NCBI RefSeq assembly: GCF_014873755.1
Contig: NZ_JADBEG010000001.1
Location: forward strand, 8,158,501-8,222,500
Origin: Amycolatopsis lexingtonensis
Lineage (GTDB): Bacteria > Actinomycetota > Actinomycetes > Mycobacteriales > Pseudonocardiaceae
Direction: 5' to 3'
DNA: 64,000 nucleotides
Part shown: positions 38,911 through 61,188 of the stretch, piece after piece
How the letters are laid out: the number at the start of each line of letters is the position of its first letter
Numbering within the stretch: position 1 is the first letter of the stretch
The notes under the pieces: model-generated
Seen by the model: only the letters and a program-made list of their open reading frames with translations
The model's database searches: none
Told to the model about the DNA's origin: nothing
Position numbers and translations under genes: made by a program

Positions 38911-39876
38911 CTAATAACCGTTCCGCTCGGGCAGCAGCGCCTGGACGTCCAGGCGGTTCGCCAGCAACCCCGAGTTGTGCATCAGGTCGGCCACCCGCTG
39001 CAGCCGGATGCCGTTGAGGGACGCCGGGTACGAGCCCAGGGAGATGAGCGCGGCCGTCGTCGAGTCGATGTCGGAGAACTTCGGGAGCGCGTCGCGGACC
39101 ACCGCCGGGTCGGTCGCGCTCTGCTGGGCCGCGCCCAGCGCCGTCCGGAACGCCGCCAGGGTGCGGGGATTGGCCTGCGCGAACGGCTTCGCCGAGGCAT
39201 AGCCGGACAGCGGGAAGTCGAGGGTCGAGCCGCGGGCGCCGTCGGCCAGGATGTGCGCGCCCAGGTCCTTCTCGGCGCGGGTGATGTACGGCTCGACCAT
39301 CAGCGCCGCGTCCGCGTCCCCGGCCTGGAGCGCCTGCGGCATCCCGTCGAACGCCACCTGCCGGAACTTGATCTTCGCCCCGTCGACGCCCGCCGTGACC
39401 AGCACCGACCGCGCGACGAGCGCGCCGATGTCGTCGAGCATGTTGACCGCGATCTCGGGCGACTTCTTCGCCGTCGGCACGGTGTAGTCGGAGCCGGGCA
39501 GGGTGACCAGCGCCATCGTGTTGGGCCCGGCCGTGTAGGCCTCGCCCTGCAGCTGCAACGCCGACCCGCCGGCCGCCGCGCGGAACATCGCGATGTCGGA
39601 GGCGAAGGTGACGTCGAGGTCGCCGGCGGCCACCTTGGCCAGCCCGTCGTCCGCGCCGAGTTCCACCAGCTGGACGTTCAGCCCGCCGGCGCCGAACTTC
39701 CCGCTCGCCACGGCGATCCGCAGCGGGGCCGTGTCGATGGCGTTGCCCACACCGACGCGCAGCGTGGTCCGTTCCAGCGGTGGCGGGGACGCCGGGGTGC
39801 CCGAAGAGAACACGCTGCACCCGGCGGTCGCCAGAAGCGCCACCACCAGCGGAATCGTCCGTCCGCGTCTGATCAT
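38911..39876 (-). CDS. Orphan NitT/TauT-type substrate-binding lipoprotein
   Basis: A 321-residue periplasmic-type binding protein anchored as a lipoprotein: basic start, hydrophobic TIPLVVALLATAGC with lipobox LATAGC (Cys about 20). The mature part begins TTLRVGVGNAIDTAPLRIAV, typical of NMT1/nitrate-sulfonate-taurine receptors, and PEIAVNMLDDIG and DADAALMVEPYITRAE fit the fold. No permease or ATPase is adjacent. It is divergent from a NIT-domain histidine kinase across a 28-bp inverted repeat, so it may present a ligand for sensing rather than import. Paralogous to the proteins at 49119 and 52656. Confidence 0.85.
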   Translation of the reverse strand: MIRRGRTIPLVVALLATAGCSVFSSGTPASPPPLERTTLRVGVGNAIDTAPLRIAVASGKFGAGGLNVQLVELGADDGLAKVAAGDLDVTFASDIAMFRAAAGGSALQLQGEAYTAGPNTMALVTLPGSDYTVPTAKKSPEIAVNMLDDIGALVARSVLVTAGVDGAKIKFRQVAFDGMPQALQAGDADAALMVEPYITRAEKDLGAHILADGARGSTLDFPLSGYASAKPFAQANPRTLAAFRTALGAAQQSATDPAVVRDALPKFSDIDSTTAALISLGSYPASLNGIRLQRVADLMHNSGLLANRLDVQALLPERNGY

Positions 39877-39942: not shown

Positions 39943-40062
39943 GCGGGCAGGGCCGGATCGCGCCAGCGCGGCTTTCGGATCTCCACGGTGCGGGCTACCG
40001 TTCAGTAGGTTCGAGTGTTGTCAGATCCGCGGGGTCCCACCCGCGGTGGAAAAGGAAACCAG

Positions 40063-42804
40063 GTGACCCGTCGCGACAAGCGTCCCCGCAAGGGCGGCGA
40101 CGCGGCGGATCCGCGTCCGGCCGGCGGCCGCTGGCGGTTGCGGAACTGGCGACTCGGCACGAAGCTCTTCGCCGTCCTGCTGATCCCGGCGCTCGCCGTG
40201 ATCGCGCTCGTCGGCCTGCGGATCAGCTCCGACCTGCGTGACGCGCGGCAGCTCGCCGAGTTCGCCACCCGCGGCCGCGTCGACAGCACCGTCGCCGAAG
40301 CCGTCCACGAACTGCAGCGCGAGCGCGACCTCACCGTCCGGTTCGTCGCACAGAACCGGCAGGGCGACACCGCCGACCTCACCGCCCAGCGCAACCGCGT
40401 CGACCAGGCCATCGGCACCTTCGAGCGGACGCTCGCCGACAGCAAGCCGCGGCTCGACGCGAAGGCCGCGGAGAGCCTGCAGCAGACCGACGACCGGCTG
40501 CGCGTGCTCGGCGGCCTCCGGTTCTCCGCGGAACACTCGGCGTTCCCCGCGGACGCCGTCCTGCGCTCCTACAGCGAGCTGATCTCCGGCCTGCTCGACA
40601 TCAGCGACTCGGCCGCCGCCGACGTCTCCGACCCCGAACTCGCGCGGCTGCGGCTGGCGGGCAACGCGCTGGCCCGGATCAAGGACCAGATGTCGGTCAA
40701 GCGGGCGGTGCTGGGCGAGGCGCTCGCCGTGGGCACGCTCGACCGCGACCGCACGCGCGCCCTGCTCGGCGCGGAAGCCGAGCTGGCCGCCGCGCGCAAC
40801 GACTACCGCACCTTCGCGACGCCCGACCAGCAGCGGATGTTCGACGACACGGTGATCGGCCTGGTCGTCGACATCGGCAACGACATGGTCGAGTCCGCGC
40901 TCACCCGCACCGAGAACAACCAGAACCTCTCGGGCCTCGACCCGAACCAGTGGGACACCTCGGCGACCCACACGGTGAACCTCACCCACCAGGTGCAGCA
41001 GGCGCTGCTGGTCCAGTTGCAGGAACGCACCGACGCGCTGGCGGCGCAGGCCCGCACGGCGGCGCTCTGGGACGGCGGCGTGGTGCTCGGCGTCCTCCTC
41101 GTCGCGGGCGTGCTGTCGGTGGTCATCGCGCGGTCCTTGTTGCGCCCCTTGCGGATCCTGCGCCGGACGGCGCTCGAGGTGGCCGAGCACCGGCTGCCCG
41201 CGGCCGTGCAGAACCTGCTCACCGATCCCGAGCCCGCCCCGGAGAACCTGCGGAAACGGCTCGCGGTCGCGCCCGTGCCGGTGTTCACCCGCGAAGAGGT
41301 GGGCCAGGTGGCGCGTGCGTTCGACGCGGTGCACGGCGAAGCCGTCCGGCTCGCCGGCGAGCAGGCGATGCTGCGCGAGAACGTCAACGCGATGTTCGTC
41401 AACCTGTCGCAGCGGAGCCAGGACCTCGTCGAGCGGCAGCTGTCGGTGCTCGACCGGATGGAGGCCGACGAGCAGGACCCTGACACCCTCGCCGGGCTGT
41501 TCGAGCTCGACCACCTCGCCACGCGGATGCGGCGCAACAGCGAGAACCTGCTGGTGCTCTCCGGCCACGACTCCGCGCGCGAGGACGCCGGCGCGGTCTC
41601 GGCGGACGAGATCGTCGGCGCCGCGCTTTCGGAGGTCGAGCACTACCAGCGGATCGAGCTCGGCCCGGCGCCGCAGCTCGCGGTGCGCGGCGAGGCCGTC
41701 AACGACCTCGTGCACGTCGTCTCGGAGCTGCTGGAGAACGCGACCCGCTACTCCGGCGACGAGCCGGTCACCGTGTCCAGCGCCGAAACCCACGACGGCG
41801 ACTGGCAGATCGAGATCATCGACCACGGCGCCGGCATGCCGCAGGCGGAGATCGACCGCACCAACCTGCGGCTCGCGCACCCGCCGGACGTCGACGTCGA
41901 GGTGTCGCGCCGGATGGGGCTGTTCGTGGTGGCGACCCTGGCCACCCGGCACCACATCGACGTCAGCCTGAGCGCGGGCGCGGATTCCGGGCTGGTGGCG
42001 ACCGTGCTGGTGCCGTCGGCGCTGATCGTCGAGCTGCCGCCGATGCCGGCGCCGCCCCCGCCCGCCGAGCCGGCCGCGCAGCCTGAGCCCGAACTGCTGG
42101 CACCGCTCGCCCCGCTCACGCCGCCGGAACCCGAGCCGGAGCCGGAACCGGAAGAGCTGTCCCCGCCGTCGATCGAGGCGGGCCCGCCGCGCCGCGCGCC
42201 GGTGGTGGCCCGCGAACAGGCACCGGAATGGCCGGTGGCGGACGACGACAACCACCTCGACCTCGACGCGCCGACCGAGCGGATGCCGGCCTACCGCGAC
42301 GTCCTGTCCCGCTGGTTCGACGCGGCCGCGGCGCCCGAACAGCCGCGCCACCCGGTGGAACCGCGTCCGGTCGCCGAGGCGCCGCGTCCGGCCGAACCTG
42401 AGCCGCGGCACGCGCTCGCCGCGGCCCCGCCACCTCCGCCACCGCCGCCACTTTCACGTGAAAGTGGCGCTTTGCCGCGCAAAGCGGAGCTTTCACGTGA
42501 AAGCGCCGCGCCGAACCCGGACGACGAGGACACCGAACCGCAGCTGCGCCCGGTCTCGCCGCCGGCCGCGATCGAGCCCGAGTACGAGTGGCCGACCCCG
42601 GCCGAACTGGAACAGGAAGACGGCGCGGAGGACACGTGGCCGTTCCTCCAGACCGACGACGTGGCCGCCGGGCCGGGAGCGGTGCCGGAACAGCGGCCGA
42701 TACTCTCACTTTCCCCGGAAGCGGTGCGCGAGCGGATGACGAGCCTTCAAGGCGGCTTCCGGCGAGGGCGGCACGCGAGGGGAGACGACACCCGGAACCA
42801 GTGA
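40063..42804 (+). CDS. NIT-domain sensor histidine kinase (CvnA-like, orphan)
   Basis: A 913-residue membrane kinase: TM1 about 33-52, an extracellular nitrate/nitrite-sensing NIT domain about 55-320 (ELQRERDLTVRFVAQNR is its hallmark), TM2 about 333-357, HAMP, and a kinase core. The kinase core has [20 protein letters not shown] (phospho-acceptor-like His), N-box ELLENATRYSGDEP, G1 DHGAGMPQAEID and RRMGLFVVATLA. Residues ~665-913 are a Pro/Glu-rich disordered tail ending in basic GGFRRGRHARG. It resembles conservon CvnA but lacks adjacent B, C and D genes; cutC follows after 13 nt. GTG 40063 follows AAGGAAACC. Confidence 0.88.
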   Translation: MTRRDKRPRKGGDAADPRPAGGRWRLRNWRLGTKLFAVLLIPALAVIALVGLRISSDLRDARQLAEFATRGRVDSTVAEAVHELQRERDLTVRFVAQNRQGDTADLTAQRNRVDQAIGTFERTLADSKPRLDAKAAESLQQTDDRLRVLGGLRFSAEHSAFPADAVLRSYSELISGLLDISDSAAADVSDPELARLRLAGNALARIKDQMSVKRAVLGEALAVGTLDRDRTRALLGAEAELAAARNDYRTFATPDQQRMFDDTVIGLVVDIGNDMVESALTRTENNQNLSGLDPNQWDTSATHTVNLTHQVQQALLVQLQERTDALAAQARTAALWDGGVVLGVLLVAGVLSVVIARSLLRPLRILRRTALEVAEHRLPAAVQNLLTDPEPAPENLRKRLAVAPVPVFTREEVGQVARAFDAVHGEAVRLAGEQAMLRENVNAMFVNLSQRSQDLVERQLSVLDRMEADEQDPDTLAGLFELDHLATRMRRNSENLLVLSGHDSAREDAGAVSADEIVGAALSEVEHYQRIELGPAPQLAVRGEAVNDLVHVVSELLENATRYSGDEPVTVSSAETHDGDWQIEIIDHGAGMPQAEIDRTNLRLAHPPDVDVEVSRRMGLFVVATLATRHHIDVSLSAGADSGLVATVLVPSALIVELPPMPAPPPPAEPAAQPEPELLAPLAPLTPPEPEPEPEPEELSPPSIEAGPPRRAPVVAREQAPEWPVADDDNHLDLDAPTERMPAYRDVLSRWFDAAAAPEQPRHPVEPRPVAEAPRPAEPEPRHALAAAPPPPPPPPLSRESGALPRKAELSRESAAPNPDDEDTEPQLRPVSPPAAIEPEYEWPTPAELEQEDGAEDTWPFLQTDDVAAGPGAVPEQRPILSLSPEAVRERMTSLQGGFRRGRHARGDDTRNQ
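42446..42504. repeat. Palindromic cluster inside the kinase coding sequence
   Basis: Three palindromes in 59 nt: a perfect 24-bp one (42446-42469, CGCCACTTTCAC and its complement), GCTTTGC-CGC-GCAAAGC (42469-42485), and GCTTTCACGTGAAAGC (42489-42504). The core CTTTCACGTGAAAG occurs twice. The frame stays open and encodes the repeated LSRES in the disordered tail, so the element is tolerated there. It looks like an inserted short palindromic element. Confidence 0.75.
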
Positions 42805-49122: not shown

Positions 49123-50063
49123 CGCACCACCATCGCCGCCACGTCCACCGGAGTGGTCAGGACGCCCGTCTTAAGCAGCAGGTCCGGGACCCGCTGCAGC
49201 CGGCGGGCGTCCAAAGTGGACTGCAGGGTCAGCAGGCCGGTGCTCGCCGCCGTGGCCGCGTCGATCTTCGCGTACTTCACCATCAGCGGCTCGATCTTCT
49301 TCCGGTCCGCCGCCGCGTCCCGGGTCGCCGCCGCCATGGCGCGCTGGAACGCCGCCACGGCGCGCGGGGAAGCCGAGGTGAACGCGCCCAGTGCGCCGTA
49401 GCCCGCGGTCGGGAAGTCCACTGTGGAGCCCGTGCCGGTGTCGGCCACCAGCACCGCGCCCGCCGACCGCGACGCCTGCGTGATGAACGGCTCGGTCAGG
49501 AAGGCCGCGTCGATGTCGCCGTTCTTCAGCGCCGCCACGGTGTTCGGCAGGGGCAGCGGGACCCACTTGACGCCCGCGGTGTCGACGTGGTTGTCGGCCA
49601 GCACGGACTTCGTCAGCGTGTCGGCGATCGTGTTCGGGGCCGAGATGCCGATCCGCTTGCCCGCCAGGTCGGCCACCGAACGGATACCGGACGCGGGCAG
49701 CGCCACCACGCCCGTCGACCGCGGGCCGGCCGACGACGCGTCGGCCACCAGCCGGATGTCCGCCGTTCCCTTGCTGCGGGCCACGAAGAACGGCGTGTAG
49801 CTCGAATACGCGATGTCGGCTTCGCCGCTGACCAGCTTCGTCAGCGACGCCTGGCCGGTCGCGGCCTCGATCGTCGAAACGTCCAGGCCTTCGCGCTCGA
49901 AGTACCCGCTGTCCTTCGCCAGCCAGAACGGGGCCGTGTCGATGGTCGACATCATCGACACGCGCAGCTTTTCCCGCGCCGCGGAGGGCGGCGACGAGCC
50001 GTCCAGTGCCGAACAACCCGTCAGCAGCAACGCCAGCAGCCCGGCCAGTACCGCCCTCACCAT
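49119..50063 (-). CDS. NitT/TauT-type ABC substrate-binding lipoprotein (operon-distal)
   Basis: A 314-residue binding lipoprotein: AVLAGLLALLLTGC with lipobox LLTGC (Cys about 17), mature start REKLRVSMMSTIDTAPFWLA, then ADIAYSSYTPFFVARSKGTA and DIDAAFLTEPFITQA. It belongs to the nitrate/sulfonate/taurine/HMP-precursor receptor family (NMT1-like). It is the last gene of the leftward ABC operon, 18 nt after the ATPase stop, with GGGGGGACC before its ATG. Clearly paralogous to the first gene of the operon, giving one transporter two candidate receptors. Confidence 0.88.
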   Translation of the reverse strand: MVRAVLAGLLALLLTGCSALDGSSPPSAAREKLRVSMMSTIDTAPFWLAKDSGYFEREGLDVSTIEAATGQASLTKLVSGEADIAYSSYTPFFVARSKGTADIRLVADASSAGPRSTGVVALPASGIRSVADLAGKRIGISAPNTIADTLTKSVLADNHVDTAGVKWVPLPLPNTVAALKNGDIDAAFLTEPFITQASRSAGAVLVADTGTGSTVDFPTAGYGALGAFTSASPRAVAAFQRAMAAATRDAAADRKKIEPLMVKYAKIDAATAASTGLLTLQSTLDARRLQRVPDLLLKTGVLTTPVDVAAMVVR

Positions 50064-50081
50064 GGTCCCCCCTGCAGTCGG

Positions 50082-50942
50082 TCAGCTCCCGGTCTTGGTC
50101 TCCGTCACGTCCGAGGTGCGCTCGGCCAGGTCCCACTCCGCGGCGTCCGACGCGGCCGTGGCGGCCTCCGCCGGGGTGCCGCCGTGCAGCAGCCGGGCCA
50201 CTTCGCCGCGCAGCGTCACGAACTCCGCCGATTCGCGCGTGGTGATCTGGTCGCGCTCGACCGGCAGGCCGACCGGCAGGTCCGCCACGATCGACGCCGG
50301 CGACTTCGACAGCACCAGCACCCGGTCGGACAGGTAGACGCTCTCGTCGATGTCGTGCGTGACGACGAGGATCGTGCTGCCCTGCTCGCGCTGCACGCGC
50401 CGGGTCAGGTCCTCGAGCTCGAACCGCGTCTGCGCGTCGACCGACGCGAACGGCTCGTCCATCAGCAGCAGCGCCGGGCGGCTGGCCAGCGCGCGGGCGA
50501 TCGACACCCGCTGCTGCATGCCGCCGGAGAGCTGCCACGGGTACTTCCCGCCGACCGCGGACAGGCCGACGTGCTCCAGCGCCTCGGCCGCCCGCTTCCG
50601 CCGTTCGGCCCGCGAGATCGGCCGCCAGCGCAACGGGAACTCGACGTTCTTCTGCACCGAAAGCCACGGGAACAGCGAACGGCTGTAGTCCTGGAACACG
50701 ACGGCAAGGTCGTCCGGCACGCCGTCGACGCGGTCGCCGTGCAGGCTGACCGTGCCCTCGGTCGGCGGGGTCAGCCCGGCGATGCAGCGCAGCAGCGTCG
50801 ACTTCCCGCAGCCCGACGGGCCGACGATGCTGGCCAGCTGCCCCGCTTCGACGGTGAACGACAGCTCGTTGACTGCGGCGTGCGCTCCTGTGCCGGTGCC
50901 GTACCGGTGACTGAGGCCGGAAACTTCGAGCATGGTGGACAT
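50082..50942 (-). CDS. NitT/TauT-type ABC transporter ATPase
   Basis: A 286-residue ABC ATPase of the SsuB/TauB group. It has Walker A IVGPSGCGKSTLLRCIAG (about 40), Q-loop VVFQDYSRSLFPWLSV, signature QLSGGMQQRVSIARAL, Walker B LLLMDEPFASVDAQT and the switch His VVTHDIDESVYLSDRV. The C-terminal ~45 residues are acidic (ASDAAEWDLAERTSD), longer than usual. ATG 50942 (MSTMLEVSGLSHRYG) is the family start. It serves the two permeases just upstream. Confidence 0.95.
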   Translation of the reverse strand: MSTMLEVSGLSHRYGTGTGAHAAVNELSFTVEAGQLASIVGPSGCGKSTLLRCIAGLTPPTEGTVSLHGDRVDGVPDDLAVVFQDYSRSLFPWLSVQKNVEFPLRWRPISRAERRKRAAEALEHVGLSAVGGKYPWQLSGGMQQRVSIARALASRPALLLMDEPFASVDAQTRFELEDLTRRVQREQGSTILVVTHDIDESVYLSDRVLVLSKSPASIVADLPVGLPVERDQITTRESAEFVTLRGEVARLLHGGTPAEAATAASDAAEWDLAERTSDVTETKTGS

Positions 50943-50962
50943 GGGGAGAGGCCTTTCCAGCG

Positions 50963-51796
50963 TCAGTCGCGGCCGAGGCGGGTCGGCTGCCAGGCCAGCA
51001 CCCGCCGTTCCGCGACCAGGAAGATCGTGTTGAAGACGTAGCCGAGGATGCCCAGCAGCACCAGCCAGGACCACATGATGGGGAATTCGAAGTCCTGCTG
51101 GGCGTTCAGCAGCGCCCGGCCGATCCCGTTGTACGCGCCGACCAGTTCGGACACGACCATCAGCAGCAGCGAGATCGACAGGCTGACCCGCAGGCCGGCG
51201 AAGATCTTCGGGGCCGCGGCCGGCAGGACGACCAGGCCGACCCAGTACCGGCGGGGCGTGCGGAACGACCGCGCCGTCTCCACCTTCACCTGGTCGACCG
51301 AGCGGACGCCGTCGACCGCGTTGAGCAGCACCGGCCACACCGCGCCGAAGATGATCGACCCGATCTGCATGCCCGAGCTCAGCCCGAAGAGCACCGCGAA
51401 CACCGGGATCAGCGTGGGCGGCGGGATCGAGCGGAAGAACGCGAACAGCGGGCCGAAGTAGTCCATCGCCGTGTCGGACCGGCCGACCAGCACGCCGATC
51501 ACGACGCCGACGACGGCGGCCAGTCCCCAGCCGCCGAGCATCCGGCCGAGGCTGGGGAAGACGTTGTCGAAGACGGCGTCGGTGAGGAAGAGGTGCGACG
51601 CGGGACCGGTGAACCACAGCTTCGCGGCGGTGGTCGCGATCTCCGTCGGCGGTGGGAAGAACTTGCTGCCGCCCGCGCGGGCGGCGAACTCCCAGCCGAC
51701 GACGAGGATCGCGAAGAGCAGCCAGTTGCGGACGACGGCGGCGGCGCCGCGGGCGGCCCGGCGGCCCACCCGCCCGGAAAGAGTTGCCGCGGTCAC
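50963..51796 (-). CDS. NitT/TauT-type ABC transporter permease (second)
   Basis: A 277-residue inner-membrane permease with six predicted helices, the first about residues 18-37. SKFFPPPTEIATTAAKLW is typical after TM1 of SsuC/TauC proteins. The EAA loop reads VETARSFRTPRRYWVGLVVL with LPAAAPKIFAGLRVSLS, the contact with the ATPase. GTG 51796 overlaps the stop of the first permease as GTGA, so the two are coupled and probably form a heterodimer. Confidence 0.93.
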   Translation of the reverse strand: MTAATLSGRVGRRAARGAAAVVRNWLLFAILVVGWEFAARAGGSKFFPPPTEIATTAAKLWFTGPASHLFLTDAVFDNVFPSLGRMLGGWGLAAVVGVVIGVLVGRSDTAMDYFGPLFAFFRSIPPPTLIPVFAVLFGLSSGMQIGSIIFGAVWPVLLNAVDGVRSVDQVKVETARSFRTPRRYWVGLVVLPAAAPKIFAGLRVSLSISLLLMVVSELVGAYNGIGRALLNAQQDFEFPIMWSWLVLLGILGYVFNTIFLVAERRVLAWQPTRLGRD

Positions 51797-52563
51797 GCGA
51801 TCGCCTCCCGGTCGACGCTGCTCCAGCGGAACAGCCGCTTGCCCAGTTGTTCGAGCCCTTCGTTGATGAGGTAGCCGAGCACCCCGGCGACCACGGTACC
51901 GGCGAGCACCAGGTCGAAGCGGGTCGAACCGGTGCTGGCGACCAGGATGAAGGTGCCGAGACCGACCTGGGAGCCGGCCAGGAACTCCACGCTGACGACG
52001 GCGATCAGCGAGATGGTCGCCGACAGCCGGACCCCGGTGAAGACGAACGGCGCGGTCTGCGGCAGCGCGACCGAAGACAGGATCCGGAACCGGCTGGTCC
52101 CGCACGCCCGCGCGGTCTCCATCAGCACCGGGTCGATCTCGCCCATGCCGTAGATGGTGTTGAACATGATCGGCCACAGCGAGGCGTACACCGCGAGGGT
52201 GATCTTCGCGTCGGGGCCGGAGCCGATCACCAGCAGCACCAGCGGCACGAGCGCGGTGACCGGGATCGGGCGGAGGAACTCGACGATCGCGGCGGTGGCG
52301 GTGCGCAGCACGGGGACGCTGCCCAGCAGCAGCCCGGCCGGCACCCCGACGGCGATGGCGATGAGGATGGCGATCAGCCAGGCCAGCATCGTCGCGACGA
52401 TGTCGCGGATGAATTCGGGGTCGCCCAGCAGGTCGCCGACGGTGACCAGGACGACGCTGGGCGGTGGGGTGAACGTCTTGCTGACCAGGCCGACCTGGAC
52501 GACGACCTCCCAGAACAGGAGGAAGCCGACCAGGCCGACCAGGCCCCGGAGCAGTTTTTTCAC
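51793..52563 (-). CDS. NitT/TauT-type ABC transporter permease (first)
   Basis: A 256-residue permease with six helices. Typical features are KTFTPPPSVVLVTVGDLLGD after TM1, PIPVTALVPLVLLVIGSG, and the EAA loop METARACGTSRFRILSSVAL with PQTAPFVFTGVRLSATISLI. It starts with GTG at 52563; its AAGG ribosome-binding site is buried in the hairpin at 52568-52655. That predicts translation regulated independently of the upstream binding protein. Confidence 0.93.
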   Translation of the reverse strand: MKKLLRGLVGLVGFLLFWEVVVQVGLVSKTFTPPPSVVLVTVGDLLGDPEFIRDIVATMLAWLIAILIAIAVGVPAGLLLGSVPVLRTATAAIVEFLRPIPVTALVPLVLLVIGSGPDAKITLAVYASLWPIMFNTIYGMGEIDPVLMETARACGTSRFRILSSVALPQTAPFVFTGVRLSATISLIAVVSVEFLAGSQVGLGTFILVASTGSTRFDLVLAGTVVAGVLGYLINEGLEQLGKRLFRWSSVDREAIA

Positions 52564-52655: not shown

Positions 52656-53678
52656 TCAGTTGGTCGCCTGCGGGGCGATCATCGGCGCCGCGTCGACCTT
52701 GCTCGTGATGACGCCCATCTGCAGCAGCAGGTCGGGCACCCGCTGCAGGCGCCGGGCGTCCAGGGTGGAGCCGTAGCCGGGCAGGGTGAGCAGCTTGGCG
52801 GTGTCTTCGTCGATCTTCGCGTACTTGACCAGCAGCGGTTCGACCTTCGAGCGGTCGTTGATCGCGTCGCTCGTGGCCTTCTTCATCGCGCGCTGGAAGG
52901 CGGCGAGGGTCTTCGGGTTCCCCTGGACCCACTTCGTCGTCGCGCCGTAGCCGGTCAGCGGGAAGTCCTGGCTGGCGCCGGTGTTGATGTCGATGACCGG
53001 CGTCGCGCCGACGGTCTTCGCCGACTGCGAGAGCATCGGCTCCGGCATGTAGGCCGCGTCCACCTGGTTGTCCTTCAGCGCCGCCGCCATGTTCGGCAGT
53101 GCGACCAGGGTCCACTTGACCGTGCTGAAGTCGACGCCGTGGTCCTTCATGACCGACTTGGTGAGGATGTCGGACGCGGTGTTCATCGCCGTGATCGCGA
53201 TTCGCTTGCCGGCCAGGTCGTTGACCGTCTTCACGTTCGAAGTCGGCACGGTGACGATGGCGTTGCTCTTCGCGTTCACCGACGTGCCGTCGGCGACGAG
53301 CTGGATGTCCGCGGCGCCCTTGCTCTTGGCGACGAAGAACGGCGTGTAGGTCGAGAGCGCGATGTCGGCTTCGCCGTTGAGCGCCTTCGTCATCGACTCC
53401 TGGCCGCTCTTGGCGACGATCTGTTCGACGTCGAGGCCCTCGGCCTTGAAGTAACCCCCGTCCAAGGCCAGCCAGAACGGCGCGAGGTCCGTCGTCGGCA
53501 TGATCGAGACCTTGATCTTCGACTTCTCCAGGCCGCCCCCGTTCGACGAGGCGTTCGAGTCGTCCGAGCCGAGGGCGCTGCAGCCCGTGAGGGCTGTCGC
53601 CGCCGCGACGGTGAGGGCGAGCCCGAGCGCGGCGCGGCGAGTGCGAACCCGGCCACTGCTCATGGCGTTTCCAAGCAA
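52656..53678 (-). CDS. NitT/TauT-type ABC substrate-binding lipoprotein (operon-first)
   Basis: A 340-residue binding lipoprotein: ALGLALTVAAATALTGCSAL with lipobox ALTGC, mature region SKIKVSIMPTTDLAPFWLAL, ADIALSTYTPFFVAKSKGAA, and QVDAAYMPEPMLSQSAK. I place the start at TTG 53678, 6 nt after AAGGAG; ATG 53663 is an in-frame alternative 21 nt from that site. First gene of the operon SBP-permease-permease-ATPase-SBP. Ligand unknown; the nearby decarboxylase is convergent and gives no firm hint. Confidence 0.88.
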   Translation of the reverse strand: MLGNAMSSGRVRTRRAALGLALTVAAATALTGCSALGSDDSNASSNGGGLEKSKIKVSIMPTTDLAPFWLALDGGYFKAEGLDVEQIVAKSGQESMTKALNGEADIALSTYTPFFVAKSKGAADIQLVADGTSVNAKSNAIVTVPTSNVKTVNDLAGKRIAITAMNTASDILTKSVMKDHGVDFSTVKWTLVALPNMAAALKDNQVDAAYMPEPMLSQSAKTVGATPVIDINTGASQDFPLTGYGATTKWVQGNPKTLAAFQRAMKKATSDAINDRSKVEPLLVKYAKIDEDTAKLLTLPGYGSTLDARRLQRVPDLLLQMGVITSKVDAAPMIAPQATN

Positions 53679-53763
53679 GGCCTGCTCCTTGGGTGAAAAA
53701 AGTGACGGTTGATGGACCGAATCCCGGGGAAGTACGTAACTCATTCTCGGGAGTACGCGGGCC

Positions 53764-53793
53764 ACTGTAGAGAACGTGACAGCTTGCTCACAA
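53764..53793 (-). promoter_or_regulatory. Putative promoter of the ABC operon
   Basis: On the minus strand TTGTGA (53793-53788) and TACAGT (53769-53764) are 18 nt apart, about 85 nt upstream of the binding-protein start. A 10-bp palindrome, GGTCTAGACC (53845-53854), lies further upstream and could be an operator. Pattern match only. Confidence 0.4.
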
Positions 53794-53975
53794 CGGGTGG
53801 GATCAATACCCGAGAGGGTGGCGCACGTCACTCTTTCGGCCTCTGGTCTAGACCCACTGCTCCACTCGCCGTAAGCGTTCACCCAGCGTAGGGCCCAGAT
53901 CCTGAATAAGAGATGTCCAGCTGTGTGCCGACTGAGCGAACGCTGTGCAACATCGAGCGCGTCCTGTCGGGAGGG

Positions 53976-54362: not shown

Positions 54363-57300
54363 GTGGCTGACGAGAACGCGATGCGCCCGGGCGGGCGCTG
54401 GACCGACCAAGGTTTCACGAGCACGAACGATGATGGTGGTGCGGCGGTGCCGAACGAAGACGCCGCGGGGGTAGGAGGGGCCCCCGCGCAGTCGCCCGGA
54501 GAGAGTCCGGGCCGGAAGGCCGGGTTCTTTTCCGGCATGCGCGACTGGCGGCTGCGCTCCAAGCTGGCCGCGGTCCTGATCATCCCGACCTTGACCGCGG
54601 CGGTGCTGGGGGCACTGCGCGTGGTCGACGACGCCAGGGAAGCGGCGGAGTTCCAGCGCACGGCCGACCAGGTGGCGTTCGCCGTCAAGGTCACGACGGT
54701 GGTCCACGAGCTGCAGAACGAGCGCTCGCTGGCCGTCGCCCGGATCTCGTCCGGCAACTCGCTGCTGCAGACCGGCCTCGACTCGCAGATCGCGAAGGTC
54801 GACCGCGAGGTCGCGGACCTGCGCTCGGCGGCGTCGACGCTCAACTACGACGACCAGGCGACCAAGGACCGCTACACCCGCGGTATCCAGCGCCTCGACG
54901 CCCTGCGCCCGCTGCGCGCCGCGTTCAACGCGCAGAACGGCCTGCCCGACATCACGGTGATGACGGCCTACTCGGGCATCCTCGACTCGCTCATCGAGCT
55001 CGGCCGCGAGGTGACCACCGCGGTCACCGACCGGGACGTGCTGCGGCTGGGCACGAGCACGCAGGCGATCAGCGAGGCCAAGGAGTTCACCACCCGCTCC
55101 GACGCCGAGCTGCAGATCGCCGCGTTCCGCGGGAGCTTCCCCGGTGACCTCCTGGACCAGACGCGCGCGTCGGCCTCCAGTGCGGACGCCTCGGTCCAGG
55201 CGTTCCTCGCGAACGCCGACGACGACCAGCGGCAGCTCTACAACGACACCTACTCGGGCCCGGAGGTCGACGACCGCCGCCGGATCCAGACCGCGGCGTT
55301 CGCCTTCGCCCAGCTGGACCAGGCGCCGAGCATCGACACCACGGCGCTCGGCAAGGACAGCACCGTTTCGGCGGACAAGCTGCACGCGGTCGAGTCGAAC
55401 CTGCTGGCCCAGCTCAAGACCCGCGCGGACGACCTCGCCACGGCGGCGGTCAACTCGGCGTGGGTCGGCGGTGCCGTGGTGCTCGCCGCCCTGGCCGCCG
55501 CGATCGCGCTGATGCTCATCGTCGCCCGCCTGATGCTGCGCCCGCTGCGGGTGCTGCGCCGGAGCGCGCTGGACGTCGCCTACACCCGGCTGCCCGAAAC
55601 CGTGCAGGCGATCCTCGACGACCCGGACCCGGTCGGCGCCTCCAAGAAGGCCGTCCAGCCGGTGCCGGTCACCTCCCGCGACGAGATCGGCGAGGTCGCG
55701 CGGTCGTTCGACATCGTCCACGAGCAGGCCGTCAAGATGGCCGCCGAGCAGGCCCTCCTGCGCGAGAACGTCAACGGCATCTTCGTGAACCTCTCCCGGC
55801 GGTCGCAGCGGCTGGTGGAACGCCAGCTCGGCGTCATCGACCGCCTCGAGGCCGACGAGCAGGACCCGGACCACTTGGCGAGCCTGTTCGAGCTCGACCA
55901 CCTGGCCACCCGGCTGCGGCGCAACGGTGAGTCCCTGCTGGTGCTTTCGGGCGCCGGCCTGGCCAAGTCCGTGCCCAAGCCGGTGCCCGCCGCCGACGTC
56001 ATCGGCGCCGCGGTGTCCGAGATCGAGCAGTACGCCCGGATCGAGGTCGGCATCGTGCCCGACGTCGCGGTCCAGGGCCTCGCGATCCACGACCTCGTGC
56101 ACGTCCTCGCGGAGCTGCTCGACAACGCGACCTACTTCTCCGAGCCGGAGACGAAGGTCATCGTCCGGGCCGTGGTGACCCGCCGCAAGGCGCTCGCCAT
56201 CCAGGTCACCGACCACGGTGTCGGCATGAGCGACGAGCGGCTGGCCGAGGTCAACGCGCGGCTCGCCGAGCCGCCGGACCTGGACGTGTCGGTGACCCGC
56301 CGGATGGGCCTGTACGTGGTCTCGCGCCTGGCCAAGCGCCACGGCATCGAGGTCCGGCTGCGCGAGAACGAGGACATCGAGGGTGGCGTGATCGCCCGCG
56401 TCGTCGTCCCGGCGGAGCTGCTCACCCACCTCCGCCCAGGCATGCAGCGGCAGACCCCGCTCCCGCCGGGCCGGTCCGAGACGTCCATGTCGATGCCGAG
56501 CATCCCGATCCCGGCCGCGCGCTCGGACTTCGACCAGACGCAGTCGTTCTCGCAGACCCCGCCGCCGCCTTCGGCGCCCCCGCCGCCACCCCCGGCCCCG
56601 CCGAAGCACGAGCCGGTGGCGAACCAGGGCGGGCTGGTCCCGCTGGACCAGCCGATCAGCCTGGACGACCTGGTCAGCGGCGGCCGCGCGGCGGGCCCGT
56701 TCCTGTCGCCCGAGCTGCCCAAGCCGGACGTGCCGGCCTGGCCGACCGCGGAGGACCTGGCGCCGCTGGCGCCCTCGTCGAACGGCGACGGGGCCAGCTC
56801 GCGGGCCGGCGACACCCAGTTCGCGCCGCTGGTGCTGCCCAAGCGCGAGCCGAAGTTCGTCCCGCCCGAGGAACCGCCCCCGGCGCCGCCGCCCGCGGCG
56901 GAGGTCGGCTCGTCGGCGCTCGAGGACGATGTACCCACCCGGCGGCTGCCCATCTACCAGTCGGTGCTGTCACGCTGGTTCAGTGAGGGCGACGACGCGG
57001 CTGCCGACCCGGTGCCGCCGCAGAGCGACCAGGGCCACCAGAGCCACCGGAGTGCGCAGGACGAGGTCGAGGACCCGAACCTGCCACCCCTCACCGGCCG
57101 CGACGAGCCCGTCCCGGAACCCGCGGACGAACTCCAGCCGACGGCGGCCACCCGGCACCCGCTCCTCCCGCCCGACGACGGCTGGCACAGCGCCTCCGAC
57201 GACGGCTGGCAGGCGGCGCAGTCGCTGCTCGAGTCCAAGAACGAGGAGATCACCACGGCCGGGCTGCCCAAGCGCATCCCGAACGCCTACCTGGTGCCCG

Positions 57301-57530
57301 GTTCGATCGGCGGTCCGAGCTCGACGCCCGACGCACCGGCCCAGAACAACTTCGCGGATGCCACCGCGGGCATGCCCGGAACGGGTGCGATCACCCGCTC
57401 GGCGTCCGCGGCGCGGAACCGGATGGCAAGCTTCCAACGTGGGTACACCTCGGGGCGCCATGCGCTGAAGGAGCGACCGGGCGACGAGGTTCCGGTGAGT
57501 GGCAACACCACAGACAGCAGTGAGGAGTGA
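54363..57530 (+). CDS. Conservon sensor histidine kinase with NIT domain (CvnA)
   Basis: A 1055-residue membrane kinase: disordered N-terminus, TM1 about 67-87, NIT sensor about 90-350 ([20 protein letters not shown]), TM2 about 365-392 and HAMP. The kinase core has [21 protein letters not shown]-box [16 protein letters not shown]1 [15 protein letters not shown] and [17 protein letters not shown] ~350-residue Pro/Glu-rich tail ends [20 protein letters not shown]. In conservons this protein docks the B, C and D proteins at the membrane in a G-protein-coupled-receptor-like complex. No response regulator is adjacent. Starts with GTG; its end overlaps or abuts the roadblock gene. Confidence 0.92.
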
Positions 57531-57532
57531 AA

Positions 57533-58012
57533 GTGACACGGGCGGGTGCAATGCAGCCGGGTGGCTCCGCGCAGCCGAACGGCCAGGCGCATGCCAAGGC
57601 GAACAATGCCGGCAGCTTCGCTTGGCTGATCACGGATTTCGTGCACCGGGTGCCCGGCGCGGCCCACGCGGTCGTGGTGTCGGCCGACGGCCTGCTCCTC
57701 GCGGCCTCGCGAGGGCTGCCGAAGGACCGGGCGGACCAGCTGGCCGCGGTGGCGTCGGGGCTGACCAGCCTCGCGCGCGGCGCGGCCAAGGTGTTCGAGG
57801 GCGGCACGGTGGCGCAGACGGTGGTCGAGATGGCCAACGGCTTCCTTTTCCTCATGTCGGTTTCCGACGGTTCGTGTCTGGCGGTGCTCGGCTCGCCGGA
57901 GAGTGACATCGGCTTGGTCGTCTACGAGATGACCCTGCTGGTGGAGCGGGTCGGCCAGCAGCTGACTCCGGAGATGCGCGCGCAACTGCAGGGCGCGGCC
58001 GTCCGCCGCTGA
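57533..58012 (+). CDS. Roadblock/LC7 domain protein (CvnB)
   Basis: A 159-residue roadblock/LC7 (MglB-like) protein: [60 protein letters not shown] and [20 protein letters not shown]. Roadblock dimers act as regulators or GTPase-activating partners of MglA-type G proteins. GTG 57533 is chosen because GAGGAG lies 5 nt upstream; an in-frame GTG at 57527 overlaps the kinase stop. The first ~25 residues are a Gly/Ala/Gln-rich extension absent from the second copy at 59806. Confidence 0.95.
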
Positions 58013-58037
58013 GGACCTGGGAACCGAGGAGAGAGCC

Positions 58038-58814
58038 GTGGACGACGGGCGCTTGAGGGGTGATGGCCGGCTCGGTGACGACTTCTCCGGTGGTTGGTCC
58101 GAGCAGGACGACGGCCGGGAGGACTGGCAGTCGTTCCGGGACCGCGTCGACCGCGAATGGCGGGCGAGGCGGGTGCAGGCATCCGACAGCGACCCCGTGC
58201 GGGAGCCGCCGAACTGGCTGACCGACAGCAACGCCGGGCAGGAACCGATCCGGCCGATCGCGGGCGGTACCGAGTACCGCGACCGGCTGCTCGGCGGGCC
58301 GGGCGCGGAGCTGTTCGGCGGTTCGAGCGGGCCGCTGTACGACGCGCACGAGTTCGCCGCGTACAGCACCGAGCGGGACTTCGGGGCCGGACCGGACTCC
58401 GGTGAGCTGGCCGCGGCGCTGCCGCAGCAGGCCCACCAGGAGTACGTCGACGCGCCGCCGCCGACGGAGATGGAGACGTCCGGCCTGGTCCGGCCGTACT
58501 TCCGGACCCGCGGGCGGACGAAGGCGACGCTCGACCTGGCCATCGAGGCGTTGATCTCGACCAGCGAACAGGGCCGGATGCTCGACCGGGTCCGGGTGCC
58601 CGAGCACCGGTCGATCTGCGACCTGTGCGTCGACACCCGGTCGGTGGCCGAAGTGGCGGCGCTGCTGCGCCTGCCGCTCGGCGTGGTGCGGGTGTTGATT
58701 GGTGACGTGGCGGGCCTCGGGCTGGTGCTGGTGCATTCCAGCAGCCCGACCGTGGGCGACCGCCCGAGTATCGAGTTCATGGAAAGGGTGCTCAGTGGGC
58801 TTCGGAGAATTTGA
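58038..58814 (+). CDS. DUF742 protein (CvnC)
   Basis: A 258-residue protein with a long acidic, disordered N-terminus (~150 residues) and a C-terminal DUF742 domain. The domain has VRPYFRTRGRTKATLDLAIE, ALISTSEQ, HRSICDLCVDTRSVAEVAAL, LRLPLGVVRVLIGDVAGLGL and FMERVLSGLRRI. DUF742 looks like a winged-helix domain and is the third conserved conservon component. Most family members have only ~130 residues, so the extension is unusual. It overlaps the GTPase gene by 20 nt. Confidence 0.93.
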   Translation: MDDGRLRGDGRLGDDFSGGWSEQDDGREDWQSFRDRVDREWRARRVQASDSDPVREPPNWLTDSNAGQEPIRPIAGGTEYRDRLLGGPGAELFGGSSGPLYDAHEFAAYSTERDFGAGPDSGELAAALPQQAHQEYVDAPPPTEMETSGLVRPYFRTRGRTKATLDLAIEALISTSEQGRMLDRVRVPEHRSICDLCVDTRSVAEVAALLRLPLGVVRVLIGDVAGLGLVLVHSSSPTVGDRPSIEFMERVLSGLRRI

Positions 58815-59403
58815 CTCCGACGCGAACGCGCCGCAGGTGACGGGTCCGACCTCGTCGGCCAAGATCGTGGTCGCCGGCGGGTTCGGTTCGGGGAAGACAA
58901 CGTTGGTCGGGGCGATCTCCGAGATCGACCCGCTGACCACCGAGGCCATGATGACCGAGGCGAGCGTCGGGCACGACGACACCTCGGCCACGCCCAACAA
59001 GACCACCACCACCGTGGCGATGGACTTCGGGCGCATCTCGCTGGACTCGGACCTCGTGCTGTACGTCTTCGGCACGCCGGGTCAGCACCGGTTCTGGTTC
59101 ATGTGGGACGACCTCGCGGTCGGCGCCATCGGCGCGGTCGTGCTGGTGGACACGCGGCGGCTCGCCGACGCGTTCCCCTCGATCGACTTCTTCGAGAACC
59201 GGAAGCTGCCCTACGTCGTGGCGATCAACTGCTTCGACCGGCTGCTGCACCACCAGATCGAAGACGTCCGGCACGCGCTGACCATCGCGCCGTCGGTCCC
59301 GATCATGGCGTGCGACGCGCGCGAGCGCGACTCCGCCAAGCAGGTGCTGATCTCCGTCGTCCAGCACGCGATCGCGCACGATTCGGCGTTGCGCGCGGGA
59401 TAG
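58795..59403 (+). CDS. MglA-like small GTPase (CvnD)
   Basis: A 202-residue Ras-like G protein: P-loop VAGGFGSGKTTLVGAISEI (about 28), switch region with NKTTTTVAMDFGRISLD, G3 VFGTPGQHRFWFMW (Gly-Gln present where Ras has DxxG) and G4 AINCFD in place of NKxD. In Streptomyces conservons the D protein cycles between GDP and GTP at the membrane under control of A and B. GTG 58795 lies within the end of the DUF742 gene. It ends this A-B-C-D unit; a new promoter region follows. Confidence 0.94.
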   Translation: MGFGEFDSDANAPQVTGPTSSAKIVVAGGFGSGKTTLVGAISEIDPLTTEAMMTEASVGHDDTSATPNKTTTTVAMDFGRISLDSDLVLYVFGTPGQHRFWFMWDDLAVGAIGAVVLVDTRRLADAFPSIDFFENRKLPYVVAINCFDRLLHHQIEDVRHALTIAPSVPIMACDARERDSAKQVLISVVQHAIAHDSALRAG

Positions 59404-59697
59404 CGGATGACCTCCCGAACCGGATGCGGCCGTTGGAGTGAACTCCGCGTGCTTCACCCACTTCGGGGAGTGGTGCCGTCGTCCGGAGCAGTGACCGGCC
59501 GCGCCGGTCCGCGGCGGCCGGCGGCGGGGCCACCGGTCCGGACCACCGGCACACCGGCTGACCTGCGCCGACACCTCGCGGTGGCGGCGCGGGACCGGCG
59601 TCGCCGGCTGTCGCCCGGAAGCGTGACCCCGTCCGGGTGGGCGCGGAGCGCGGCCACGCGCACACGTAGGGTGCGCTGCGGCCGGCCCGTGGTGGAC

Positions 59698-59725
59698 TCG
59701 ACACCACCGGCGGTGCGAATACGCT
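59698..59725 (+). promoter_or_regulatory. Putative promoter for the second roadblock-DUF742 pair
   Basis: TCGACA (59698-59703) and TACGCT (59720-59725), 16-nt spacer. The 402-nt gap 59404-59805 holds no supported gene, and this is its best promoter-like pair; a strong AAGGAGGGG site precedes the next start at 59806. Confidence 0.35.
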
Positions 59726-59805
59726 TTACCGTGGCGTCGTCGACCGGCCGTGCCGGACGCTCCGGGGTGCGGCACGCGATGCCGCGCGAGCAAGGAGGGG
59801 CAGTA

Positions 59806-60222
59806 GTGACGGCTTCCGGCCAGGGCACATTCGGCTGGCTCATCACGGACTTCGTGCGCCGGGTACCGGGTGCGGCGCACGCCGTCCTGGTGTCCGCGGA
59901 CGGGCTGCTCCTCGCGCCGTCGGAAGGGCTGCCGCAGGAGCGCGCCGAGCAGCTGTCCGCGGTGGCGTCCGGGCTGATCAGCCTGACGCAAGGCGCCGCG
60001 CGCTGCTTCGAAGCGGGCGGCGTCAACCAGACCGTGGTGGAGATGGAGCGCGGCTACTTGTTCTTGATGTCCGTTTCGGACGGCTCGTCGCTGGCGGTGC
60101 TGGCCGCCCCGACGTGCGACATCGGCACGGTCGCCTACGAGATGACCCTGCTCGTCGAGCGGGTCGGCCAGCAGATCACCCCCGAGCTGCGCGCGCAGCT
60201 GCAGGGCGGCGTGCGTGGGTAG
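59806..60222 (+). CDS. Second roadblock/LC7 protein (CvnB paralogue)
   Basis: A 138-residue roadblock protein very close to the one at 57533: [60 protein letters not shown]. By eye about three quarters of aligned residues are identical, pointing to duplication. It lacks the N-terminal extension. AAGGAGGGG lies 5 nt before GTG 59806. It pairs with its own DUF742 gene 6 nt downstream but has no linked kinase or GTPase, so it may heterodimerise with, or compete in, the main conservon. Confidence 0.94.
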
Positions 60223-60228
60223 GACGAG

Positions 60229-61188
60229 ATGAGGATTTCGGGATTCGACGATCCGGACTCCAGCGGCTGGGACGCACTGCACCGCGGCACCGAGCGCGAG
60301 GGTTTCGATTCGCCCAGCAAGTTCGACATGTCGACGCTGTCGATGATCATGCCCAAGCGCAAGCCGTCCCGGCCGAAGCCGGATCCGCAGGGCTACACCG
60401 ACGAGGACACCCGTGAGTGGGGCTCGTCGTCCGACGACGAGGAGTACACCGGCGGGCACCGGCGCCACGTAGCGGACGACTACCCGCCCGCGCCGCCGCG
60501 CGAGTTCGCCGGCTACGCGGACGCGCACTCGCCCCAATACGCCGAAGACGGCTACGACCCGGCCGAGCCCGAGTGGCAGGACGGCGAAACTTACGCGCCG
60601 GAGCCCCCGGCACTGGAACCGGCGTGGACCCCGCCGCGGGGTGCCCGCCCGCCCGCGCCGCCGCGGCCCCCGGTCGCGCACCGGCCGCCCGCGCCGCGTC
60701 CGCCCGCGCCCCGGCACCCGGTGGCGCCCCCGCCGTCGTGGACGCCCCCGCCGGACCCGGAGACCCGCTGGATCCCGCAGCCGGAGCCGTGGGAGGACCC
60801 GGCCTGGCACGAACCGGCCCGCGTCGCGAGCCCGGTGCCGGTCGCTTCGGCGAACTCGCGGGTCCGCCCGTACACCCGCACCGGCGGGCGCACCCGGTCC
60901 GACCACAACCTGGCGCTGGAGGCGCTGGTCTCGACGTCCGACGACGGCCGCCGCTACCGCGGGGTCCGGTCGGTCGAGCACCGCCGGATCTGCGACCTGT
61001 GCCTGGACACCCGCTCGGTCGCCGAGATCGCCGCCCACCTGCGGCTGCCGCTGGGCGTGGTGAAGATCCTGGTCGGCGACATGGCCGACATCGGCCTGGT
61101 GCTGATCCACCAGACCGAGCTGATCCTCGGCGACCGCTCGTCCCGCGACTTCATGGAACGCGTGCTCGCGGGCCTGCGTGCGCTTTAA
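60229..61188 (+). CDS. Second DUF742 protein with long proline-rich region (CvnC paralogue)
   Basis: A 319-residue protein: an acidic N-terminus (MRISGFDDPDSSGWDAL), a Pro-rich middle (about 140-195, PPAPRPPAPRHPVAPPPSW), and a C-terminal DUF742 domain (VRPYTRTGGRTRSDHNLALE, HRRICDLCLDTRSVAEIAAH, LRLPLGVVKILVGDMADIGL, FMERVLAGLRAL). The domain is clearly paralogous to that at 58038, while the N-terminal halves are unrelated. The proline-rich segment is suited to docking or low-complexity assembly. Its TAA shares TTAA with the convergent gene. Confidence 0.92.
   Translation: MRISGFDDPDSSGWDALHRGTEREGFDSPSKFDMSTLSMIMPKRKPSRPKPDPQGYTDEDTREWGSSSDDEEYTGGHRRHVADDYPPAPPREFAGYADAHSPQYAEDGYDPAEPEWQDGETYAPEPPALEPAWTPPRGARPPAPPRPPVAHRPPAPRPPAPRHPVAPPPSWTPPPDPETRWIPQPEPWEDPAWHEPARVASPVPVASANSRVRPYTRTGGRTRSDHNLALEALVSTSDDGRRYRGVRSVEHRRICDLCLDTRSVAEIAAHLRLPLGVVKILVGDMADIGLVLIHQTELILGDRSSRDFMERVLAGLRAL

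What the first reader, a model, noticed from the sequence alone, without database searches (positions are those of the whole stretch)
54363..61188. Conservon with a second, kinase-less B-C module
The sequence shows A-B-C-D (NIT kinase, roadblock, DUF742, MglA-like GTPase) followed by a second roadblock-DUF742 pair with its own strong ribosome-binding site and a 402-nt gap before it. The two roadblock proteins are very similar, the two DUF742 proteins share only their C-terminal domain. Conservons normally have one of each component. The extra B'-C' pair could swap into the complex, giving two output states from one sensor and one GTPase, or act as an inhibitor. Inference beyond the gene order.
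Basis: partly seen in the sequence, partly recalled or inferred. Interest (0 to 1): 0.75.

Follow-up and report, generated by a model that had tools for sequence, protein, structure and literature searches.

The report
Interleaved conservons with a displaced kinase
The extra pair of signalling genes behind this bacterial G-protein operon is probably the stranded second half of another such operon, whose own sensor kinase still sits about 17,000 bases upstream in the same window, so it looks like an old two-sensor arrangement rather than one sensor with two outputs.

Summary
But B'-C' is not kinase-less by origin. In Tamaricihabitans and a MAG the same locus reads SBP-A'-B'-C' without a GTPase; trees join A' with those kinases (100/99) and B'-C' with those B-C pairs (100/98). 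A complete conservon, SBP2/A-B-C-D, lies between A' and B'-C'. C and C' lie 1.5-3.1 kb apart in 58 of 60 Amycolatopsis genomes; A' lies 6.7-18.2 kb from A in 33 of 33 composites checked. A promoter-like sequence precedes B' in 26 of 29 loci. Inferred mechanism: A' works through B'-C' (GAP/GEF) on a GTPase not its own: the adjacent D, or the unlinked D at 4709 kb (48 of 48 genomes; the only D found in Tamaricihabitans). Adjacent conservons sharing one GTPase are in print (PMC4316618); the nested form is a new variant.

The parts
54363..57530 (+). A: CvnA (NIT-HAMP-HATPase sensor kinase-like) of the inner, complete conservon
   Evidence: Pfam; groups with the Kibdelosporangium/Actinokineospora type; LPxR motif [16 protein letters not shown] present
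57527..58012 (+). B: roadblock/LC7 protein (CvnB, GAP-like) of the inner conservon; start may be GTG 57533
   Evidence: Pfam; 12 fixed changes against single-copy relatives
58038..58814 (+). C: DUF742 protein (CvnC, GEF-like) of the inner conservon
   Evidence: Pfam
58795..59403 (+). D: MglA-like small GTPase (CvnD), the only one found in this locus
   Evidence: Pfam; own-genome search; D tree; 15 fixed changes in composites
59432..59459 (+). Conserved non-coding block behind D, one copy in the genome; function unknown
   Evidence: 13-sequence alignment, conservation, genome pattern search
59698..59725 (+). Predicted promoter of B'-C': -35 TCGACA, 16-nt spacer, -10 TACGCT
   Evidence: Pattern in 26 of 29 composite loci; in none of 46 scanned rows (44 distinct regions) upstream of A and A'
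59806..60222 (+). B': second roadblock/LC7 protein; nearer to the single-copy relatives than B is
   Evidence: Pfam; 2 fixed changes; clade with Tamaricihabitans/MAG B-C 100/98
60229..61188 (+). C': second DUF742 protein with an N-terminal motif (WDALHRGTEREGFDSPSKF here) of a kind shared with Tamaricihabitans/MAG C
   Evidence: Pfam; motif
40015..42804 (+). A': displaced second CvnA (NIT-HATPase), inferred kinase partner of B'-C'
   Evidence: Pfam; clade with Tamaricihabitans/MAG kinases 100/99, 99 with 13 A' rows (quick); found in 33 of 33 composite genomes checked
38911..39876 (-). SBP1: NMT1-like substrate-binding lipoprotein divergent to A'
   Evidence: Pfam; SBP type largely follows kinase type
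52656..53882 (-). SBP2: NMT1/THI5-like substrate-binding protein divergent to A, next to ABC permease 51793-52563 and further transporter genes 49119-52177
   Evidence: Pfam; ORF list

Best explanation
Two conservons are interleaved. The resident one, SBP1/A'-B'-C', has no GTPase gene of its own; a complete one, SBP2 with an ABC transporter and A-B-C-D, lies between A' and B'-C'. B'-C' is therefore the GAP-GEF half of the A' pathway, not a spare part of the A pathway, and is probably transcribed from its own promoter in front of B'. Inferred mechanism: A' (possibly with SBP1) senses its own ligand and steers the B' roadblock dimer (GAP) and C' (GEF), which set the nucleotide state of a GTPase that is not theirs. 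The GTPase is either the adjacent D, so that two sensors feed one switch, or the unlinked D at 4709 kb. I lean slightly to the 4709-kb D, because it fits both Tamaricihabitans and Amycolatopsis. Shown: gene order, trees, conservation, promoter-like sequence. Inferred: pairing of A' with B'-C', GAP/GEF activity, the GTPase partner. The order of events (insertion of the inner conservon, or its loss in Tamaricihabitans) is not settled.
For: Second CvnA in the window. Contiguous SBP-A'-B'-C' at the same locus, between an XPB helicase gene and a Helicase_C_3 gene, in Tamaricihabitans and a MAG. The window's A' groups with those kinases 100/99, and so do 13 composite A' (99, quick tree); those kinases with composite A: p-AU 3e-6. 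B'-C' groups with those B-C pairs 100/98; B and B' as sisters to the exclusion of those pairs: p-AU 0.03. D falls with the inner-type D (quick tree). C' N-terminal motif in 24 of 27 readable C' and 2 of 2 Tamaricihabitans/MAG C, in 0 of 29 composite C and 0 of 49 single-copy C. SBP type largely follows kinase type. A' in 33 of 33 composites checked, with no B, C or D homologue at E 1e-8 between A' and A in 20 of 20 loci fetched. pN/pS of A' 0.11-0.23 against 0.10-0.27 for A in the four closest genomes where A' was read; B' at or under 0.07 in the five closest named species. Promoter-like sequence in 26 of 29 loci. D at 4709 kb found in 48 of 48 genomes and the only D-type match in Tamaricihabitans; it keeps the ancestral residue at 12 of the 15 sites at which the adjacent D changed. 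GAP role of CvnB and likely GEF role of CvnC: passages of PMC13343842.
Against: No interaction is shown. A' of the composites lacks the CvnA LPxR motif in 18 of 19 readable cases, while Tamaricihabitans and MAG A' keep it, so A' may have changed its job. A' is split between frames in 2 genomes (G003; G046), and one C' match holds in-frame stops (G055). B'-C' has stayed 117-510 nt behind D in the composite loci mapped, which favours the adjacent D. A clade of B, B' and the Tamaricihabitans/MAG pairs together is not rejected (p-AU 0.53), so where B-C came from is open. The D tree also puts a distant paralogue (L060) into the inner-type group, so that grouping is weak. The promoter pattern is missing in both Prauserella and in Saccharomonospora. 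In 7 of 22 A'-type loci the SBP is nearer to SBP2 than to SBP1.
Confidence: 0.72

Rival explanations
1. Shared-switch model (differs from the best explanation only in the GTPase): A' with B'-C' acts on the adjacent D, so that two sensors, each with its own GAP/GEF pair, converge on one GTPase (two inputs, one switch).
For: C and C' within 1.5-3.1 kb in 58 of 60 Amycolatopsis genomes; B' starts 117-510 nt behind D in the 28 named composites; no other GTPase gene nearby. PMC4316618 (passages) reports adjacent conservons that share one mglA.
Against: D changed together with B (15 and 12 fixed changes), while B' changed at 2 sites, as if D were fitted to B. Tamaricihabitans keeps A'-B'-C' with no such D.
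Confidence: 0.4
2. One reading: B'-C' is a spare pair that swaps into the A-D complex, giving two output states from one sensor, or inhibits it.
For: B and B' are 75% identical, and B' has an Asp-Gly aligned with the one that PMC13015309 (passages) names in MfpD, so B' could bind D or pair with B.
Against: A second kinase of the lineage that sits directly before B'-C' in two relatives is in the same window; B'-C' probably has its own promoter.
Confidence: 0.12
3. In-place tandem duplication of B-C inside A-B-C-D, with A' an unrelated orphan.
For: A clade of B, B' and the Tamaricihabitans/MAG pairs is not rejected (p-AU 0.53); B' and B share the derived Ala23.
Against: Sister relation of B and B' to the exclusion of the Tamaricihabitans/MAG pairs has p-AU 0.03; the A trees and the C' N-terminal motif tie B'-C' to A'.
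Confidence: 0.1

Closest known systems
Conservon / actinobacterial G protein system (CvnA-D; Cvn8, Cvn9; Mfp system)
   Same: Same four components and gene order for A-B-C-D; domains confirmed. CvnB (MfpD) as GAP and CvnC (MfpC) as likely GEF are stated in PMC13343842 (passages seen).
   Different: Here two sets are nested; the outer one lacks a GTPase gene and its kinase stands 17 kb away from its B-C pair.
Adjacent duplicated conservons with one mglA lost (1:2 MglA:MglB cases, Wuichet and Sogaard-Andersen 2014, PMC4316618, passages seen)
   Same: Two roadblock genes near one GTPase gene; one conservon without its own GTPase.
   Different: That text describes neighbours, not one conservon lying inside another; a displaced kinase, a separate promoter and B-D co-divergence are not in the passages seen. 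Its supplementary table of cases was not readable here.

Membership tests
Conservon (A-B-C-D) | CvnA with HATPase domain, CvnB Robl_LC7, CvnC DUF742, CvnD GTPase in this order on one strand | tested here: met
   window 54363-59403
Conservon (A-B-C-D) | The same four genes adjacent, for the B'-C' set | tested here: not met
   No A or D beside B'-C' other than the inner set's D; A' ends 17.0 kb before B'; all 8 D-type GTPases of the genome belong to complete sets
Conservon (A-B-C-D) | Conserved C-terminal LPxR motif of CvnA (as given in PMC4316618) | tested here: not met
   For A'. Window A has it; window A' lacks it. Of 21 composite A': 18 lack it, 1 has it, 2 could not be read
Conservon (A-B-C-D) | ATPase, GTPase, GAP and GEF activities; complex of A with B and C, and of B and C with D | not testable with these tools
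   Needs biochemistry
Adjacent conservons with one GTPase lost (1:2 MglA:MglB) | Two MglB-like genes coupled to one MglA-like gene | tested here: met
   B and B' on either side of the only D in the locus
Adjacent conservons with one GTPase lost (1:2 MglA:MglB) | Second conservon complete apart from the GTPase and adjacent (my reading of the passage) | tested here: not met
   Kinase A' separated from B'-C' by the inner conservon and other genes in the window and, as far as the stretches reach, in 20 of 20 fetched composites; contiguous in L083 and L085 only, among the 80 named loci

The most novel reading that the evidence does not exclude
Actinobacterial G-protein systems are wired in trans: a displaced kinase and its promoter-separated GAP/GEF pair regulate a GTPase belonging to another conservon, while the neighbouring GAP and GTPase have co-diverged so as not to cross-react, a natural case of specificity change between conservons kept across a clade of Pseudonocardiaceae.
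Probability: 0.35. Interest if true: 0.72.

Novelty: new variant of a known kind. Interest (0 to 1): 0.5.

Why it matters
Conservons are abundant in large actinobacterial genomes and their wiring is barely known; cross-talk between them has been proposed (PMC8510531, passages seen) without a clear case to test. This locus gives one: two GAP/GEF pairs, two kinases and a small set of candidate GTPases, with sequence changes that predict who binds whom. The divergent pairing of NMT1-like binding proteins with these CvnA genes also points to a possible ligand-delivery partner for a class of sensors whose ligands are mostly unknown.

Tried and rejected
Single transcript without a promoter for B'-C': not favoured because of the conserved -35/-10 pair, though no RNA data were available. 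The generic sigma-70 scan found nothing; its consensus is stricter than the pattern seen here. The pattern was chosen after viewing 13 aligned sequences, so the fairer count is 13 of the 16 loci that were not in that alignment. Some of the upstream regions in the control are cut at the end of a stretch.

An Rfam match in the D-B' gap: none up to E 1; folding of 59404-59490 is little better than shuffles (z -1.0). A copy of the conserved block elsewhere in the genome, which would have suggested a regulon: none with up to 3 mismatches.

Loss of LPxR as a mark of conservons without a GTPase: rejected, since the GTPase-less A-B-C sets of the window genome (L051), Tamaricihabitans and the MAG keep the motif.

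The same promoter in front of A or A': not found. Solved structures by sequence: B' matches Rv3364c/MfpD (9hef), CvnB5 (3leq) and two other roadblock entries; D and C' match nothing. No structure prediction was run, since a single chain could not tell which GTPase B' binds. No mirror-tree test was run, because B' varies too little.

Rows dropped: A' rows for the eight named loci, B' rows for G005, G003 and G025, and the SBP1 row for G031 compare with the wrong paralogue, because the fetched stretch ends before the right gene; C' rows under half coverage were not computed. In one search, own-genome sets L057-L059, L062, L063 and the contig-cut L068 were left out of the tree after one search showed very long branches. 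Trees use thinned sets (71, 64, 64, 64 and 42 rows).
Full report
OBSERVATION. The six genes are real and in the order given. D starts at GTG 58795, overlapping the end of C. The gap D-B' is 402 nt. B and B' are 75% identical over 132 residues; C and C' align only over the C-terminal DUF742 domain (63%). The window is G000:C1:8158501-8222500 of a 10.74-Mb genome; the nearest named records are Amycolatopsis species.

CENSUS. The genome has 13 DUF742, 12 roadblock and 8 D-type GTPase matches at E 0.001. Mapping of 14 fetched stretches gives 8 complete A-B-C-D sets, one A-B-C set without D at 532 kb (followed by a MHYT membrane protein), the B'-C' pair, and single C or B genes elsewhere (C at 7545, 140 and 4160 kb; B at 8848 and 388 kb). 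So no D is left over as an orphan partner for B'-C'.

CONSERVATION. With C' as query, 60 of 60 same-genus genomes match. In 58 of 60 a C and a C' lie on one strand 1.5-3.1 kb apart (starts of the matches); in the other 2 they lie on different contigs. In 60 genomes of the family (46 genera) such a close pair passes E 1e-24 in 13 genomes of 9 genera (my reading of the rows; a lower bound, because weaker second matches are cut off). C' follows B' in 27 of the 28; in the Saccharomonospora record (L114) the start of C' is there and then a run of N.

THE MISSED KINASE. A blast of the window with its own genes and their flanks found a second CvnA at 40015-42804: NIT and HATPase domains over their Pfam cut-offs, HAMP just under, no B, C or D beside it, followed by cutC and other genes. 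In Tamaricihabitans (L085) and a MAG (L083) the same locus, framed by an XPB helicase gene and a Helicase_C_3 gene, reads SBP-A'-B'-C' in one run without D. Of 35 genomes searched with A' residues 1-328, all match. In the 33 composites among them A' lies 6.7-18.2 kb from A, and in 20 of 20 fetched stretches no B, C or D homologue (E 1e-8) lies between A' and A.

TREES. Kinases (64 rows, careful method): the window's A' is sister to the Tamaricihabitans/MAG kinases (100/99), within a 24-row clade (95/93) that in the quick tree holds Lentzea, Saccharothrix, Umezawaea, Kutzneria and Saccharopolyspora. The window's A belongs with Kibdelosporangium, Actinokineospora and others (quick tree, 98). A and A' as sisters: p-AU 4e-9; Tamaricihabitans/MAG kinases with composite A: p-AU 3e-6. 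With 13 A' rows in place of one, A' plus Tamaricihabitans/MAG is again a clade (99, quick tree of 42 rows), so the placing does not hang on one long branch. B plus C (64 rows): B'-C' and the Tamaricihabitans/MAG pairs form a clade (100/98), and the composite B-C a separate long branch (100/100). AU tests: B with B' to the exclusion of Tamaricihabitans/MAG 0.03; B with Tamaricihabitans/MAG 0.03; B, B' and Tamaricihabitans/MAG together 0.53; B with the Kibdelosporangium type 0.22; B' and Tamaricihabitans/MAG with the Lentzea type 0.21. So the tie of B'-C' to the Tamaricihabitans set is firm, and the origin of B-C is not resolved. D of the composites falls with the Kibdelosporangium type on a long stem (quick tree), but so does a distant paralogue on a longer branch (L060), so this is the weakest of the trees. 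An earlier quick B+C tree (109 rows) left Tamaricihabitans/MAG outside B'-C' at an unresolved fork.

INDEPENDENT MARKS. (1) C' begins with a motif of the kind WDALHRGTEREGFDSPSKF in 24 of 27 readable composite C' (the 3 without it are short proteins of 119-124 aa; 2 of 29 could not be read) and in both Tamaricihabitans/MAG C proteins; it is in 0 of 29 composite C and 0 of 49 readable single-copy C (first seen). (2) An NMT1-like binding protein stands divergent to the kinase in 39 of 40 single-type loci; it is nearest to SBP1 in 15 of 22 A'-type loci (7 are nearest to SBP2) and to SBP2 or SBP3 in 17 of 17 A-type loci. Of the remaining loci, 15 have one, 3 do not, 28 were too short upstream to tell; none of the 8 other conservons of this genome that were checked has one. 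In the window A' stands with SBP1 and A with SBP2.

SELECTION AND CO-DIVERGENCE. In close pairs pN/pS is 0.10-0.27 for A, 0.11-0.23 for A', 0-0.07 for B and B', and 0-0.06 for D (wrong-paralogue and short rows dropped, see Tried and rejected). B has 12 fixed changes against both single-copy groups, B' 2, the C domain 6 and the C' domain 6. D has 15, and the D at 4709 kb and its Tamaricihabitans orthologue both keep the ancestral residue at 12 of these 15. So D changed along with B, not with B'. The D at 4709 kb was found in 48 of 48 genomes at 85-100%, and is the only D-type match in Tamaricihabitans (query the window's D, E 0.001). I read this as a slight lean to that D as partner of B'-C'; it is not proof.

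LPxR. CvnA proteins carry a C-terminal LPxR motif (PMC4316618, passages). In AGLPKR form A has it in 20 of 21 composites (the last, L184, has a shorter frame without it). Of 21 A', 18 lack it, 1 (G013) has it, 2 could not be read. Tamaricihabitans and MAG A' keep it. What its loss means is open.

EXPRESSION. In the D-B' gap two stretches stand out in 13 aligned sequences: a block around 59432-59459, one copy in the genome, and TCGACA-N16-TACGCT at 59698-59725, which predicts a start near 59732. The promoter pattern is in 26 of 29 composite loci (missing in two Prauserella and in Saccharomonospora), in 13 of the 16 not used in the alignment, and in none of 46 scanned rows (44 distinct regions) upstream of A and A'. 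So B'-C' probably has a promoter of its own.

MECHANISM. From PMC13343842 (passages): MfpD, the CvnB homologue, is a GAP, and MfpC, the CvnC homologue, likely a GEF. From PMC13015309 (passages): MfpD is a dimer and binds MfpB two to one; the Asp-Gly it names has a counterpart in B and B'. Hence B'-C' is best read as the GAP/GEF pair of A', acting in trans on a GTPase. Whether that is the adjacent D or the one at 4709 kb is the open question.

LITERATURE. [quoted passage not shown] That takes away part of the novelty. Searches for conservon with Amycolatopsis (4 papers), with substrate-binding protein (0 papers) and with duplicated/orphan (15 papers) listed nothing, by title and abstract start, on a nested form or a displaced CvnA. 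Most subscription papers are not held, and the supplements of PMC4316618 were not readable here, so this is not proof of absence.

Noticed in passing
window 38911-39876 and 52656-53882, and 39 of 40 single-type related loci: NMT1-like substrate-binding lipoproteins lie divergent to NIT-type CvnA genes, and their type largely follows the kinase type; none beside the 8 other conservons of this genome that were checked. They may deliver the ligand to the sensor.
   Followed up: partly
window 59432-59459: Conserved non-coding block behind D containing GGAGTGAACTCC and GCTTCACCC; nearly invariant in 13 Amycolatopsis sequences, single copy in the genome, function unknown.
   Followed up: partly
L051 5247-9663 (G000 about 529.2-533.7 kb): GTPase-less conservon A-B-C followed by a MHYT-domain membrane protein instead of D.
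   Followed up: no
L166 (G003) and G046:C1:3663892-3664868: The A' gene is split between two frames in two genomes; sequencing error or decay was not tested.
   Followed up: no
L053 4114-4515 and L052 5177-5692: Single DUF742 genes with no roadblock, kinase or GTPase match in the fetched 10-kb stretches, the first of them close to the window's C.
   Followed up: no
L159 (G122:C11) and G000:C1:4708763-4709371: A second conservon type whose D is found in 48 of 48 genomes searched at 85-100% identity.
   Followed up: partly
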